The notes beneath the pieces were generated by a model. The model made no database searches. It had not been told where the DNA came from and worked only from the letters and a program-made list of their open reading frames with translations. Of a stretch of 64,000 bases of DNA, positions 11,287-49,608 are shown piece after piece. The translations under genes were made by a program, and so were the position numbers. Within the stretch, counting starts at the first letter, position 1; each line of letters starts with the position of its first letter. Location: the NCBI GenBank assembly GCA_020852275.1, contig JADZBE010000039.1, forward strand, positions 124,001 through 188,000, given 5' to 3'. The stretch comes from Phycisphaerales bacterium (lineage in GTDB: Bacteria; Planctomycetota; Phycisphaerae; UBA1845).

Positions 11287-13980
11287 TCAACATTGTGCGT
11301 ACCCGCAGCTCTCACACTTAACGCAACCCTCGACAAAGTTCAGCTTACCTTGACATTCCGGGCACACGATCTTGAACGTATCCGGTTCTTCCACTTCCGG
11401 AGCTGCTAGGGCGAGGCTCGTTCCCGAAGCGGAGAATCGTCCCCGCATCCCTGAGGTTACGAGTTTCGCGCCGCCGTTTTCATGTCCTCCGTTGCTGCCG
11501 TTGCCGGCGTGCCCGCTGCTTCCGCCATTGCTGGAGCCGCCGCCGTTGCCTCCGTTGGATGCGGCTCCCCCGTTGCCACCGTGGGGGGGCCCATGTTTGC
11601 TGCCCCCAGCAGTTGAAGGCGACCGCTCGGTAAGGGGCTTGCCGAGGTCGCTGAGGTCGTACTCGCCGTGGAGCATGGCCTTCAGGCCGAACTGCGCTTT
11701 GGCCTGCATGTACTTTCGCAGCGCCCTGGCCAGCCCGTCTGCGAGGCTCATGATCCGTCCCTCCTTTGTGCTGACCTGGAGGCTGGATCCGATGCCGTGT
11801 AGCTGCCTCACGACCGCCATCATGTCGCCGCCGGCGCGGAGCCAGAGGCTGACCATGCGGCAGATGGCCTCCAGATCGCTCGTCGCCAGGTCGCCGCCCT
11901 TGCCGAGCTGCGCAAAGACCTCCAGCTCCTTGCCGTTGCGCGGATCGACGGTGACGTTGATGTGCATGTTGCCGAACGGCGTGAGCTGGCGGATGCGCAG
12001 ACCCGAGCAGATTTCCGGCAGCATGGCCGGCTCGAGCGGCTCGTCGCGCAGCACCGGCTTGACCGCGGCTGGCGTCGCGGCGGGCGCGGCGCTCTCCGCA
12101 TGGACCTTGTCGCTGGACTTCAGCGCCATGGGTTGGTGCTTGCGGCAGCCGTTGCGATACACGGTGACGCCCTTGCAGCGCAGCTCGTACGCCAGGCGGT
12201 AGATTTTCTCCACGTCGTCCTTCGACGCCGTTTCGGGGAAGTTGATGGTCTTGGAGATCGAAGCGTCGCAGTGCTCCTGAAACGCGGCCTGCATGCGCAT
12301 GTGCCACTCGGGCGAGATGTCGTGGGCGCACACGAAGACGCGGCGGACGTCCTCGGGGACGTCGTCAATGTGAGCGAGGGTGCCCTCCGTGGCGACTTTT
12401 TCCAAAAGCCCCTCGCTCAAAAATCCGTGCTGCTGGGCGACGCGCAGGAAGATCGGGTTGACCTCGATCATCGGCTGCTTGCCTTCGTCCTGTCCGCGGA
12501 GCACGTTGCGGATGAAGGCGAGGCTGTACATCGGCTCGATGCCGCCGGAGCAGCCGGTGATGATGCTGATCGTGCCCGTCGGCGCCACGGTCGTGGTCGT
12601 CGAGTTGCGCATCGGACGGTGGTGCTTCGTGTCCCAGATGCTGCCTTCCCAGTTGGTGAAGGAGCCGCGCTCGCGCGCCAGCTTCTCGCTGTAGTGGTGC
12701 GACTCGTCATCGACGAACTTCATGAACCGCCGCCCCCACTCGACGCCCTCCTCGCTGTTGTACGGCACATCCAGCTCGTAGAGCGCGTCGGCGAAGCCCA
12801 TCACCCCCAGGCCGATCTTGCGGTTGGCCTTGCACACCGCGTCGATCTGCGGCAGCGGATAGCGGTTGGCGTCGATGACGTTGTCGAGGAAACGCGTGCT
12901 CTCGTGCACGGTCTCGCGCAGTCCGTCCCAATCGACGTACGCCGCGCCGTCCTCGTGCCGCTTGATGAACAGCGCGAGGTTGATGCTGCCGAGGTTGCAC
13001 GCCTCGAAGGGCAGCAGCGGCTGCTCCCCGCAGGGGTTGGTCGCCTCGATGCGCCCGACGTGCGGCGTGGGGTTGGCCTCGTTGATGCGGTCGATGAAGA
13101 CCACGCCCGGCTCGCCCGTGCGGTGGGCATTGTTGACGATGATGTCCCAGATGTCGCGGCGCGTGTAATACTCGCCCGGCTTGATCTCCATGTCCGGGCG
13201 GTAGGGCGTCAGCGAGTGGATGTCGTACTCCCAGATCTTCAGCGACTTGGCGAGCACGTAGGGCTTCTTCGTCCGCGGGTTGACCACGATGTGCGGTCCG
13301 TCCGGCTCGGCGAGGAAGTCCTCCATCCACTCGTCGGTCGCCTTGACGGAGATGTTGTAGTTGGTGAACTGCGACAGATCCTCCTTGGCGTGGAGGAACT
13401 TGAGGATGTCCGGGTGGGTGATGTACATCATCCCCATGTTGGCGCCGCGGCGGAACGCGCCCTGCTGGATGGCGTTGGTCGCTTCGCTGAAGGCCTTCCA
13501 GAAGGAGATCGGTCCGCTCGTGGTTCCGCCGCTGCTGGCGATGTAGTCTCCGGTCGGGCGCAGCTCGTCGAAGGCGAAGCCCGTGCCGCCGCCGGCCTTC
13601 TGGATCAGCGCGGTCCACTTGATGCAGTCGAAGATGTCGTTGATGCTGTCGCGCACGGGGAGGACGAAGCACGCGGAGAGCATGCCCATCTCGCGCCCGG
13701 CGTTCATCAGCGTCGGGCTGTTGGGCATGAACCGTCGATCGCCCATCAGGCGGTAGAAGCGGTCCTCCCACTCCTGCGCGATGGCCGGGTCGGACGCGTA
13801 CGTATTCTCCGGCTCGGCGATGGCGCGGGCGACCCGGCGGAAGAGCTGCTCGGGCGTTTCGAGGCACCGCCCGTTCTCGTCCTTCTTGAGGTACCGCGCA
13901 CGCAGCACGCGAACCGCGTTCTCTGTCAACCTCAACTGATCCTCCCGACGTGCGTCCTTCATGGCCGAACTCGTCGTCAT
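11287..13980 (-). CDS. nrdJ: adenosylcobalamin-dependent (class II) ribonucleoside-diphosphate reductase
   Basis: 897 residues. It reduces ribonucleotides to deoxyribonucleotides with adenosylcobalamin as radical source. Family blocks in order: 'RFMPNSPTLMNAGREMGMLSACFVLPV' (first active-site Cys), 'KAGGGTGFAFDELRP', 'TNPCGEQPLLPFEACNLGSINLA' (N-x-C-x-E radical-site Cys and Glu), 'APTGTISIITGCSGGIEP', and a C-terminal zinc-ribbon tail CPECQ...CESCGYAQC with the shuttle cysteines. A ~50-residue Gly/Asn/Ser linker (about 800-850) precedes the tail. The start at 13980 is set by AAGGAGCGAGGCG before the ATG. No other reductase class is seen here. The promoter carries two NrdR boxes. Confidence 0.95.
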   Translation of the reverse strand: MTTSSAMKDARREDQLRLTENAVRVLRARYLKKDENGRCLETPEQLFRRVARAIAEPENTYASDPAIAQEWEDRFYRLMGDRRFMPNSPTLMNAGREMGMLSACFVLPVRDSINDIFDCIKWTALIQKAGGGTGFAFDELRPTGDYIASSGGTTSGPISFWKAFSEATNAIQQGAFRRGANMGMMYITHPDILKFLHAKEDLSQFTNYNISVKATDEWMEDFLAEPDGPHIVVNPRTKKPYVLAKSLKIWEYDIHSLTPYRPDMEIKPGEYYTRRDIWDIIVNNAHRTGEPGVVFIDRINEANPTPHVGRIEATNPCGEQPLLPFEACNLGSINLALFIKRHEDGAAYVDWDGLRETVHESTRFLDNVIDANRYPLPQIDAVCKANRKIGLGVMGFADALYELDVPYNSEEGVEWGRRFMKFVDDESHHYSEKLARERGSFTNWEGSIWDTKHHRPMRNSTTTTVAPTGTISIITGCSGGIEPMYSLAFIRNVLRGQDEGKQPMIEVNPIFLRVAQQHGFLSEGLLEKVATEGTLAHIDDVPEDVRRVFVCAHDISPEWHMRMQAAFQEHCDASISKTINFPETASKDDVEKIYRLAYELRCKGVTVYRNGCRKHQPMALKSSDKVHAESAAPAATPAAVKPVLRDEPLEPAMLPEICSGLRIRQLTPFGNMHINVTVDPRNGKELEVFAQLGKGGDLATSDLEAICRMVSLWLRAGGDMMAVVRQLHGIGSSLQVSTKEGRIMSLADGLARALRKYMQAKAQFGLKAMLHGEYDLSDLGKPLTERSPSTAGGSKHGPPHGGNGGAASNGGNGGGSSNGGSSGHAGNGSNGGHENGGAKLVTSGMRGRFSASGTSLALAAPEVEEPDTFKIVCPECQGKLNFVEGCVKCESCGYAQC

Positions 13981-14014
13981 CGCCTCGCTCCTTGCGGCTT
14001 GATGAAACGTATGA

Positions 14015-14036
14015 GGGGCGCAAGCCGTTGCGCCCC
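14015..14036 (-). other. hairpin in the nrdJ 5' leader
   Basis: GGGGCGCAA and TTGCGCCCC pair perfectly (9 bp, 4-nt loop), 35 nt before the nrdJ start codon. The leader has no recognisable B12-box, so I do not call a cobalamin riboswitch. Confidence 0.5.
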
Positions 14037-14139
14037 AGGGGTATGAAAACTGGTACCTCGCCGGGAGGGTCCGAAGCGCCTGCATGGGCTGTGAAATCTT
14101 TCCCATTGGGACGCTCGCCGGAATCTCGCGGCAAGATGA

Positions 14140-14168
14140 ATAGTACCACAAGAATTGGTGGTTGGCAA
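14140..14168 (-). promoter_or_regulatory. nrdJ promoter
   Basis: On the minus strand: -35 TTGCCA (14168-14163), exactly 17-bp spacer, -10 TACTAT (14145-14140). The start codon is ~150 nt downstream of the expected transcription start. The spacer coincides with an NrdR box. Confidence 0.75.
14146..14161 (-). promoter_or_regulatory. NrdR box, proximal
   Basis: CCACAAGAATTGGTGG keeps the CAC...GTG halves of the NrdR consensus (aCaCwAtATaTwGtGt) and fills the promoter spacer of nrdJ. Confidence 0.65.
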
Positions 14169-14175
14169 ATGAAAC

Positions 14176-14191
14176 CTACAAGATATTGTGT
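14176..14191 (-). promoter_or_regulatory. NrdR box, distal
   Basis: On the minus strand ACACAATATCTTGTAG, a close match to the NrdR consensus, just upstream of the -35 element. The gap to the proximal box is 14 bp (centre distance 30 bp), in the range known for tandem NrdR boxes. Confidence 0.75.
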
Positions 14192-14484
14192 CCTCACAGG
14201 GCTGGTGTACTCGTGCCAATTGGCGCGATGTTCCGATAAGCTATTGCCCGCCGGAGCCTTGCGCGGCGGGGTTTCACGGTGAGATCTTGGTGAGGATTCT
14301 GAAAAAAAAATATTCAGCGGGCGAACCGGATCATCGCGTGGAGGCGTGGATTGGGTACATCTCCCCACGGACGCGCGCGTGACGTGGCGCGGCCCGCTGC
14401 GTGGCTGCTTGGGTTGTGTTCCGTTGAGCGTCGCGGGGGAGGCGCTATCGCCTGCGGAGGTACTCGAAACGCGGGATGGGTGCC

Positions 14485-14586
14485 GTCACCTCCGCGCAGG
14501 CGGGGGTCCAGTCCACCTTGGGAAATCCGCTGTTATCTTGCTCCCCAGGAAGCGACCGGCTGGATTCCCGCCTTCGCGGGAATGAC
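14485..14586 (-). repeat. ~101-bp MITE-like element, copy B
   Basis: Same element as 1011-1110, inverted. It ends in GCGGGAATGAC and begins GTCACCTCCGCG. The ATTCCC-N8-GGGAAT palindrome is at 14564-14583. It sits just upstream of the DNA glycosylase gene. Confidence 0.85.
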
Positions 14587-14618
14587 AAGCGTCGCAGCTC
14601 GCCACAGATTGTGACGGC

Positions 14619-15647
14619 ATGGATAGACGAAAGTTGGAGCTGGAGGTTGCGGCGCCGTTCTCGCTGCGCGCGACGGCGCTGGGGCACGGCTGGCATGAGT
14701 GCGCGCCGATGTCGTGGTGCGAAGGCGGAGGCTGTCTGCAATGGCTGACGCGCGAGGGAAGTCAGGTCCGGCGCATCAGCGTGCTGCAGCGCGCGTCGAG
14801 CCGGCAGCGCGTGACGCTCGAGGTGCTGTTGGAGGGGCGGGAGCTGACGAACGCAAGCGAGGAGCTGGCGCGCCGTGAGTGCGTTGTCTCCCTCGGGCTT
14901 GCGTCCCGGCTCGACGAGTTTCACGAGCTGTGCCGCGCGCATCCGCTGCTGCACGTGATTCCGAAACTCGGCGCCGGCCGCCTGCTGCGCAACGCTTCGA
15001 TGACCGAGAACATCCTCAAGGCCATCTGCGGCACGAACGTCAACTGGGACCAGGCCGTCAAGATGATCAACCGCCTCGCGCAGCTCGGTCCGCTGTTTCC
15101 GCACTTCCGGAACCTGACCGCGTGGCCGACGTGCCGGGAGATTCTCAAGGCCGGCGATTCGTACGTCCGCGGCGTGGCGCGGCTGGGCTATCGAACGGAG
15201 GCGATCTTGAAGTTGTGCCAGGAGTCTGTCACCGGCGACGCCGAGCATGACGGGCAGGAGGGTCCGCGCAAGCGCACGCCATCCGAGGCGCGAGGCAGTG
15301 CGCGCGCGAGGGAGGGGATCGAGGCTGCGGCGGGGCTGGAGGCGCTGGATGCGCTGGCCCGGACCGAGCCGACGCCCGCGCTGCGCAAGCGGCTGCTGGG
15401 GATTCGGGGCGTGGGACCGGCCACGGCGGGCTTTCTGCTCTCCATCCTCGGACATCACGACCATCTCTCGATTGACTCAGCCACGCTGGCGCACGTGACG
15501 CGCCTGCACCTGGGCGGTCGCAAAAAGGCCACGGCGAAACAAGTGGAGGCGATTTACGAGCCGTATGGGAAGTGGAAGAACCTCGTGTACTGGTTCGAGA
15601 ATTGGATCCATTGGGGCACGGCCCGGAGCATGATCGCGGAGCTGTGA
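14619..15647 (+). CDS. HhH-GPD superfamily DNA glycosylase
   Basis: 342 residues. The C-terminal half has a helix-hairpin-helix followed by a Gly/Pro-rich loop and catalytic Asp: 'LLGIRGVGPATAGFLLSILGHHDHLSID'. The position where bifunctional OGG1/EndoIII enzymes carry the catalytic Lys is Thr here, so a monofunctional AlkA-like glycosylase that removes alkylated or damaged bases is the better guess. The N-terminal ~110 residues form a beta-rich domain as in AlkA/OGG1. A charged insert (about residues 210-245) is unusual. It is a stand-alone gene whose ATG is ~30 bp after a MITE-like element. Confidence 0.8.
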   Translation: MDRRKLELEVAAPFSLRATALGHGWHECAPMSWCEGGGCLQWLTREGSQVRRISVLQRASSRQRVTLEVLLEGRELTNASEELARRECVVSLGLASRLDEFHELCRAHPLLHVIPKLGAGRLLRNASMTENILKAICGTNVNWDQAVKMINRLAQLGPLFPHFRNLTAWPTCREILKAGDSYVRGVARLGYRTEAILKLCQESVTGDAEHDGQEGPRKRTPSEARGSARAREGIEAAAGLEALDALARTEPTPALRKRLLGIRGVGPATAGFLLSILGHHDHLSIDSATLAHVTRLHLGGRKKATAKQVEAIYEPYGKWKNLVYWFENWIHWGTARSMIAEL

Positions 15648-15714
15648 ACTGGAGTGAGGACCGCGGCTTCGTGGTGGTGAGGATCGGTGCGTCGCCCGTG
15701 AGCCGCTTTGGAAT

Positions 15715-15824
15715 GGCACAGGTTGGGAAACCTGTGCCACACCCACCGGTTGGGAAACCGGTGCCACACCCACCGGTTGGAAAATCGGTGCCACACACAC
15801 CGGTTGGGAAACCGGTGCCACACC
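15715..15824. repeat. four tandem CACCGGTTGGGAAACCGGTG-type palindromes
   Basis: Four ~30-bp units, each a palindrome of CAGGTT/AACCTG or CCGGTT/AACCGG type followed by CCACA. They fill most of the gap between the convergent glycosylase and zinc-ribbon genes. The same family occurs at 17486, 28227, 30397, 51917 and 4023. Confidence 0.9.
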
Positions 15825-49110: not shown

Positions 49111-49608
49111 ATGCGGTGCCCGACGTGTAGAGCCGACAGCGACAAGGTCATCGACTCCAGGTCCACGGACGGCGCCGCCGCGATTCGGCGTCGCCGTCAG
49201 TGCATCGCCTGCGGGCGGCGCTTCACCACCAAGGAACGCGTCGAGGAGGAGCTGCGCCTCACGGTCGTCAAGGCCGACGACAGCCGCGTGCCCTATCACC
49301 GCGAGAAGATCGAGGAAGGCCTCGAACGCGCCTGCTACAAGCTGCCCGTGACCGAGGAACAGATCGGGCAGATCGTCGATCGCGTGGAGGAAGACCTCTT
49401 CCGCAACCACGATCGCGAAGTCACCTCGGAGCAGATCGGGCTTCTGGCCGCCCGGCATCTGCGCTCGGTCAACGCCGTGGCGTACGTCCGCTTCGTGAGC
49501 GTGTACCGCAAGTTCAGCACCGTTCAGGAGTTCGTGGACGCCATTCAGGACGTTCGGGAGCGCGGGGCGCTCGAATCGCCCCAGCAGCGGTCGCTGTTTA
49601 CCGACTAA
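49111..49608 (+). CDS. nrdR: NrdR transcriptional repressor of ribonucleotide reductase genes
   Basis: 165 residues. The N-terminal zinc ribbon CPTCRADSDKVIDSRS...RRQCIACGRRFTTKERVEE is typical, then the ATP-cone ('VVKADDSRVPYHREKIEEGLERACYKLPV') that senses ATP/dATP, and 'HLRSVNAVAYVRFVSVYRKF'. NrdR binds tandem NrdR boxes when nucleotide pools are high. Two such boxes are in front of nrdJ at 14.15 kb. The start is ATG 49111; a GTG at 49099 is possible. Confidence 0.95.
   Translation: MRCPTCRADSDKVIDSRSTDGAAAIRRRRQCIACGRRFTTKERVEEELRLTVVKADDSRVPYHREKIEEGLERACYKLPVTEEQIGQIVDRVEEDLFRNHDREVTSEQIGLLAARHLRSVNAVAYVRFVSVYRKFSTVQEFVDAIQDVRERGALESPQQRSLFTD

What the first reader, a model, noticed from the sequence alone, without database searches (positions are those of the whole stretch)
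14140..14191. Tandem NrdR boxes embedded in the nrdJ promoter, with nrdR in the same window
A distal box (ACACAATATCTTGTAG on the minus strand) and a proximal box lie 30 bp apart centre to centre, about three helix turns. The proximal box fills the exactly 17-bp spacer of a TTGCCA/TACTAT promoter 150 nt before the class II reductase gene. The nrdR gene is at 49111-49608. This gives a complete and directly readable repression circuit for a B12-dependent reductase in a planctomycete-like genome.
Basis: partly seen in the sequence, partly recalled or inferred. Interest (0 to 1): 0.72.

Follow-up and report, generated by a model that had tools for sequence, protein, structure and literature searches.

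The report
NrdR repressor site at nrdJ promoter
A planctomycete's only detected enzyme gene for making DNA building blocks carries the paired binding site of the NrdR repressor inside its promoter; the site is real and shared by many relatives but of a known kind, though it led to two less ordinary observations about how such sites move and what else they may control.

Summary
Confirmed. On the minus strand a distal box (14191-14176) and a proximal box (14161-14146), 30 bp apart centre to centre, precede nrdJ; the proximal box fills the 17-bp spacer of TTGCCA/TACTAT. It is the only such pair in the window, and 30 shuffled windows hold none. Among 85 nrdJ upstream regions of related Phycisphaerae-type planctomycetes, 75 have a pair with a 14-16 bp spacer and 66 a box inside the promoter; shuffles give 0.17 and 0; 21 outgroup regions have none. 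NrdJ is the only RNR found, and NrdR keeps the DNA-contact residues. Best explanation: an ordinary NrdR operator; binding and repression are inferred. Against: the proximal box is non-canonical and three genus-mates have GC-centred boxes. Two additions. The partner of the promoter box lies upstream (24) or downstream (40), two rows have both; the tree needs three switches. And another strong box pair in the genome precedes a structured RNA with a 9-codon ORF, found in 74 of 100 relatives and without an Rfam match; in genus-mates the boxes there and at nrdJ changed alike.

The parts
14176..14191 (-). distal NrdR box ACACAATATCTTGTAG (C4/G13 kept, central AT)
   Evidence: lineage PWM score 19.3, highest in the window
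14146..14161 (-). proximal NrdR box CCACCAATTCTTGTGG (C4/G13 kept, non-canonical central TT), inside the promoter spacer
   Evidence: PWM score 13.2
14163..14168 (-). -35 hexamer TTGCCA
   Evidence: relatives mostly TTGACG/TTGACA at the same place
14140..14145 (-). -10 hexamer TACTAT, 17 bp from the -35
   Evidence: 17-bp spacer in 61 of 66 embedded-box promoters
14130..14134 (-). TTGCC element at the presumed transcription start, conserved in both register classes
   Evidence: TTG[CT]C 3-14 nt after the -10 in 18 of 26 class A and 21 of 40 class B
13988..13993 (-). ribosome-binding site AAGGAG before the nrdJ ATG at 13980
11287..13980 (-). nrdJ, adenosylcobalamin-dependent class II ribonucleotide reductase, no ATP-cone domain found
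49111..49608 (+). nrdR, Zn-ribbon/ATP-cone repressor

Best explanation
The two boxes are one operator for a tetramer of NrdR. When dATP is plentiful, dATP plus ATP in the ATP-cones puts NrdR in the DNA-binding tetramer; it holds both boxes, about three helix turns apart, kinks the DNA and blocks RNA polymerase, because the proximal box lies exactly between the -35 and -10 elements. nrdJ transcription falls. When dATP falls, NrdR lets go and nrdJ is expressed. Shown here: the boxes, the promoter overlap, their conservation with helical spacing in relatives, a single nrdR with the DNA-contact residues, and nrdJ as the only RNR found. Inferred: binding, repression, dATP/ATP control. Because NrdJ has no ATP-cone match, NrdR may be the main dATP overall-activity sensor of this organism (inference).
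For: Pair conserved: 75 of 85 ingroup upstream regions have a pair with 14-16 bp spacer (57 regions at 15), 66 of 85 with one box in the promoter spacer; 40 shuffle sets give mean 0.17 (max 2) and 0. The consensus-only score, not trained on these data, gives 8/40/12 of 76 at spacers 14/15/16 against 0.1-0.3 expected. The published regex finds 46 of 85 ingroup and 0 of 21 outgroup. NrdR found in 76 of 80 relatives. One NrdR Zn-ribbon, one PF02867 RNR, no NRDD in G000. NrdR: TIGR00244 and both Pfam domains; D15, R17, R26-R29 and R37 identical to S. coelicolor NrdR, residues named as DNA contacts in PMC9110341 (passages). Spacers of 14-17 bp bind all four tested NrdRs (PMC12051234, passages and Discussion).
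Against: The proximal box departs from consensus (central TT; the pair fails the published regex on the coding strand and passes only on the other). 14 bp is the short edge of the tolerated range and a minority spacing here (10 of 85 against 57 at 15). Nearest relatives G001-G003 have distal CTACAATCCCTAGTGT and GC-centred proximal sequences, C4 lost in G002 and G003; these and G029 fall below my threshold. 15 of 21 outgroup genomes encode NrdR though their nrdJ upstreams have no pair, so NrdR presence does not imply this operator. No binding or expression data.
Confidence: 0.9

Rival explanations
1. The conserved palindromes are the site of another regulator that happens to resemble NrdR boxes.
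For: The boxes in this clade lean to CCCCNANATNTGGGGG rather than ACACWATATATWGTGT, and 15 of 21 outgroup genomes have NrdR without the boxes.
Against: 16-bp boxes, AT centre, RNR-gene position and the 14-16 bp spacing (spacing not imposed) all match NrdR; NrdR present in 76 of 80 relatives. C4/G13 was imposed by my scan and is no evidence.
Confidence: 0.06
2. The site is a vestige in this genus: the promoter works, but NrdR control is weakened or lost.
For: Degenerate boxes in G001-G003 while TTGCTC and TATAAT/TACAAT persist; non-canonical proximal box in the window.
Against: The window's pair scores 32.5 with the lineage PWM, inside the range of related pairs; proximal boxes with GGG centres also occur in G012, G037 and G043 next to good distal boxes; NrdR kept in all four genomes; the GC-centred sequence CACAAGGGGT recurs before the structured RNA in the same genomes, which looks like a changed specificity rather than decay.
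Confidence: 0.12
3. Chance similarity in a 64-kb window.
For: Single-box IUPAC pattern is at chance.
Against: Pair score unmatched in 30 shuffles; cross-genome conservation with fixed spacing and promoter phase.
Confidence: 0.01

Closest known systems
Streptomyces coelicolor nrdRJ operator and NrdR (PMC9110341, passages read)
   Same: NrdR box pair three turns apart controlling a class II RNR gene; same NrdR contact residues
   Different: There nrdR directly precedes nrdJ in the nrdRJ unit and a class I nrdAB exists; here nrdR is 35 kb away without boxes and nrdJ is the only RNR found; the region between Zn-ribbon and ATP-cone is four residues longer
E. coli nrdAB operator with boxes 0, 1, 2 (PMC12176259, passages read)
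   Same: Three boxes in tandem, so that an upstream or a downstream pairing is possible; the functional pair is the downstream one (boxes 1+2)
   Different: One operon in one species; here whole clades use the upstream or the downstream pairing, and some have three boxes
Listeria monocytogenes nrdAB with two box pairs (PMC12051234, section 2.1 and Discussion read)
   Same: A second, distal pair besides the promoter pair
   Different: In some planctomycete families the second pair sits at family-specific distances (96-97 or 167-170 bp); the window itself has none

Membership tests
NrdR operator (NrdR box pair) | two 16-bp palindromic boxes with conserved C4 and G13 | tested here: met
NrdR operator (NrdR box pair) | AT-rich centre with central AT in both boxes | tested here: inconclusive
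   distal AT, proximal TT; a box with central AG also serves in E. coli nrdAB (PMC12176259)
NrdR operator (NrdR box pair) | boxes an integer number of turns apart (14-17 or 24-27 bp spacer) | tested here: met
   14 bp here; 14-16 in 75 of 85 upstream regions
NrdR operator (NrdR box pair) | upstream of an RNR gene and overlapping the RNA polymerase site | tested here: met
NrdR operator (NrdR box pair) | binding by cognate NrdR with dATP+ATP, both boxes needed | not testable with these tools
   needs MST/EMSA
NrdR repressor | Zn-ribbon plus ATP-cone, TIGR00244 above cut-off | tested here: met
   152.3 bits against 124.65; PF22811 and PF03477
NrdR repressor | D15, R17 and RRRR motif | tested here: met
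   identical in alignment with 7p37; R12 is K12
class II RNR (NrdJ) | NrdJ_Z / PRK08665 family above cut-off | tested here: met
   677.4 and 984.9 bits
class II RNR (NrdJ) | adenosylcobalamin dependence | not testable with these tools
   family assignment only

The most novel reading that the evidence does not exclude
In this genus NrdR controls, besides nrdJ, the gene of a structured small RNA with a 9-codon ORF behind a full-length Shine-Dalgarno sequence, an RNA family found in most genomes of the order and without an Rfam match. In the three sister species the operator centres changed from AT to GC at nrdJ and at the RNA gene alike, as if NrdR's specificity had shifted and both targets followed. 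(A second, more secure reading: across the order the NrdR operator moves by one-unit register shifts, one box fixed in the promoter spacer and its partner moving between upstream and downstream, with three-box intermediates.)
Probability: 0.35. Interest if true: 0.55.

Novelty: new member of a known kind. Interest (0 to 1): 0.38.

Why it matters
It places a planctomycete whose only detected RNR is B12-dependent under the same nucleotide-sensing repressor as E. coli and Streptomyces, and since NrdJ lacks an ATP-cone match, NrdR may carry dATP feedback there. The comparative set offers natural variants (upstream, downstream and triple arrangements; second operators at fixed distances; GC-centred boxes) on which the helix-phase and recognition models of NrdR can be tested. 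If the structured RNA is a second target, NrdR would reach beyond RNR genes.

Tried and rejected
Cobalamin riboswitch in the 150-nt leader: none of the 7 Rfam matches up to E 10 in 13700-14700 is a B12 element, and the window has no match at gathering score. nrdR autoregulation: best upstream single box PWM 5.0, no pair.

Other NrdR targets in G000: the published pair pattern gives 49 matches against 44 for its control. I scored the cores of 42 (7 reverse-strand rows of the same places left out); besides nrdJ two reach a similar core score. C4:37966 lies in long open frames and scores low over full boxes (9.1+7.7); rejected. C22:173685 (8.5+16.9) is kept as a candidate. I first took it for unconserved and corrected that after aligning the genus. 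Of 30 RNA loci scanned by script only G000 (25.4), G003 (12.5) and G006 (10.0) show a pair; G001 and G002 are seen by alignment only.

Second box pairs as operators of the neighbouring gene: neighbours differ (ArsR-type methyltransferase, LpxB, M20 peptidase) while the distance to the nrdJ promoter stays fixed, and no convincing reverse promoter was seen.

Limits: my lineage PWM was trained on pairs that my first scan had selected with C4/G13 required, so the class counts are not independent of it; searches are. The tree is a quick LG+G4 tree with 34 of 86 inner branches open. Rows dropped: G004 (contig edge), G027 (203 nt only), second copy G030b, loci L144, L166, L172, L173; L133 was too short for the tree.

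Full report
What is there. The minus strand upstream of nrdJ reads ...gaggACACAATATCTTGTAGgtttcatTTGCCAaCCACCAATTCTTGTGGTACTATtcatcTTGCCgcg.... The distal box is 14191-14176, the proximal box 14161-14146, with a 14-bp spacer (30 bp centre to centre). The proximal box plus one base is the whole 17-bp spacer between TTGCCA and TACTAT. The gene starts at ATG 13980 behind AAGGAG, so the inferred leader is about 150 nt. The gene is a class II RNR (PRK08665 984.9 bits, NrdJ_Z 677.4 bits) with RNR N-terminal, barrel and TSCPD domains and no ATP-cone match. nrdR at 49111-49608 is TIGR00244 with Zn-ribbon and ATP-cone. In the whole assembly (5.05 Mb, 96.9% complete) there is one PF02867 RNR, one NrdR Zn-ribbon and no class III RNR.

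Chance. The loose single-box pattern is unremarkable. The pair is not: scored against the NrdR consensus (recalled from the literature, not from a call) it is the only pair >=25 with 14-17 bp spacing in 64 kb, and 30 shuffled windows hold none >=27. In the genome as a whole the very degenerate published pair pattern is at chance (49 against 44), so that pattern alone proves nothing.

Relatives. The lineage is Phycisphaerae-type Planctomycetota; record titles of near loci are Phycisphaerae/Planctomycetota MAGs, and BroJett003, MAG_25 and Bin_14R have contigs of the same lengths, with nrdJ at the same places, as the genus-mates G001-G003. nrdJ was found in 78 of 80 relatives and NrdR in 76 of 80. 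I collected 108 upstream regions: 78 from these genomes (G030b included, G004 left out) plus 30 further named loci. With the consensus score, 76 of the first set show 8, 40 and 12 regions at spacers 14, 15 and 16 bp against 0.1-0.3 in shuffles, with at most 3 at any other spacing from 0 to 45. With a lineage PWM plus promoter test on the 85 ingroup regions of sufficient length, 75 have a pair and 66 a box embedded in the promoter; 40 shuffle sets give mean 0.17 (max 2) and 0. The 21 outgroup regions (other planctomycete or unnamed loci and Gemmatimonadota) have none, although 15 of those 21 genomes encode NrdR. The published regex, independent of my PWM, gives 46 of 85 and 0 of 21. So the method is not simply finding palindromes upstream of any nrdJ.

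Against the reading. The proximal box has TT in the centre, and the pair passes the published regex only on the non-coding strand. In the three genus-mates the promoter is kept but the box centres are GC-rich, and C4 of the proximal box is lost in two; with G029 they fall below my threshold. Within its genus the window genome is thus 1 of 4 with a clear pair. GC-centred proximal boxes next to good distal boxes also occur in G012, G037 and G043, so weak proximal boxes seem tolerated.

Register. In 66 promoters one box sits in the promoter spacer, which is 17 bp in 61. Its partner is upstream in 24 (class A, as in the window), downstream over the presumed start in 40 (class B), and both in 2. 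On a quick NrdJ tree of 89 rows, A and B (64 rows) need 3 changes; 200 shuffles of the labels needed at least 12. Class A covers the window's clade (27 rows: 18 A, 3 pair only, 6 none, 0 B), part of family f7 (5 A and the 2 with both), and G058. Promoters with two boxes upstream of the embedded one occur in G005, G026 and G033. A TTGCC element after the -10 is kept in both classes (TTG[CT]C at 3-14 nt: 18 of 26 A, 21 of 40 B; TTGC at 20-32 nt: 1 and 0, where the two with both are counted as A). In class B it runs into the downstream box; in class A it stands alone, which fits either a start-site element or a relic of that box. In G000 the pattern promoter-plus-TTGC is rare (4 matches, control 2), so it is not a general promoter form there. 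Some families have a second pair at a fixed distance upstream: 96-97 bp (G055, G071, L142, L148) or 167-170 bp (G060, G063, G066, G069, G075, L130).

A possible second target. The strongest other pair among the 42 regex places scored in G000 by full boxes is at C22:173685 (GCCCTACATCTCGGAC, 15 bp, ATACAAAATCTTGGGG; PWM sum 25.4). Six simulated 5.05-Mb genomes (order-2 Markov from the window) gave no pair >=20. It lies 16 bp before TTGACG-18-TATACT and a roughly 309-nt stretch that folds better than all of 100 shuffles (z -5.3). A model of its 3' part finds a match in 74 of 100 relatives, mostly one per genome; no Rfam family at gathering score in 10 loci except two tRNAs elsewhere, no tRNA or tmRNA in L196. 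It has GGAGGTGATCC followed by a short ORF; 18 of 30 loci read as exactly nine codons, usually ending IGxLP or IGxLL, while 8 of 30 showed no such Shine-Dalgarno near the match. In G001-G003 the aligned place before the same promoter has CCTCTACCGGTAGG.. and ACACAAGGGGT.. 15 bp apart. CACAAGGGGTG also stands in the nrdJ promoter of G002 and G003. In all three genomes CACAAGGGGTK occurs 3, 3 and 4 times: nrdJ (G002, G003), the RNA gene (all three), and otherwise in two conserved stretches that read as coding. So the boxes at the two loci changed in the same way. Outside the genus no comparable pair was found before the RNA (26 of 30 loci; one weak score of 10.0 in G006), so this would be a genus-level link, and no more than a candidate. 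The genus-mates' NrdR keeps D15, R17 and R26-R29 but differs nearby.

Mechanism. From PMC9110341 (passages): NrdR with dATP+ATP is a tetramer that binds two boxes about three turns apart, with near 90-degree kinks, using D15, R17 and arginines 12, 26-29 and 37. The window's NrdR has D15, R17, R26-29 and R37 (K12). From PMC12051234 (sections 2.1, Discussion, methods 4.6 and passages): four NrdRs bind 14-17 bp spacers, one box alone does not suffice, and RNR promoters of all GTDB representatives were scanned by regex. The simplest mechanism is promoter occlusion by NrdR. Binding and repression were not tested here.

Novelty. NrdR control of class II genes (S. coelicolor nrdRJ), triple boxes (E. 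coli nrdAB, PMC12176259 passages) and double pairs (L. monocytogenes) are in print. The site is therefore a new instance of a known kind. Two literature searches (listings only) showed no paper on NrdR in Planctomycetes by title, and PMC12051234 and PMC9110341 do not contain 'planctomycet'; the library is open-access only. For the RNA two searches (listings only) gave no paper that is evidently about it; PMC2864571, a survey of candidate bacterial RNAs, was listed and not read.

Noticed in passing
L196:1594-1902 (G000:C22, about 173778-174086), outside the window; L272-L301: Structured RNA (fold z -5.3) with GGAGGTGATCC, a 9-codon ORF ([MVL]xxxIGxLP/LL) and a terminator-like end; model R1 finds it in 74 of 100 relatives, mostly single copy; no Rfam match in 10 loci checked. 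Little covariation in the 9-sequence alignment (2 of 18 pairs).
   Followed up: partly
G000:C22:173674-173730 and the same place in G001-G003 (L253-L255): Box pair with 15-bp spacer before that RNA's promoter, AT-centred in G000 and GC-centred in the sister species, in parallel with their nrdJ boxes.
   Followed up: partly
nrdJ upstreams of G060, G063, G066, G069, G075, L130 and G055, G071, L142, L148: A second NrdR-like box pair 167-170 bp or 96-97 bp upstream of the promoter pair, at constant distance although the upstream neighbour differs in those checked.
   Followed up: partly
window 14130-14134 and relatives: TTGCC element at the presumed nrdJ start site conserved in both operator registers; function unexplained.
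   Followed up: partly
window 14619-15647 (+): Divergent neighbour ORF of 342 aa with no Pfam match at E<=0.001.
   Followed up: no
window about 15680-15800: Repeated unit read as GCGTGFPTG or WHRFPNRW in overlapping frames, looks like an intergenic tandem repeat.
   Followed up: no
window about 14560-14590: GGATTCCCGCCTTCGCGGGAATGAC, an inverted-repeat element between nrdJ and its divergent neighbour that resembles widespread REP-type repeats (recalled, not tested).
   Followed up: no
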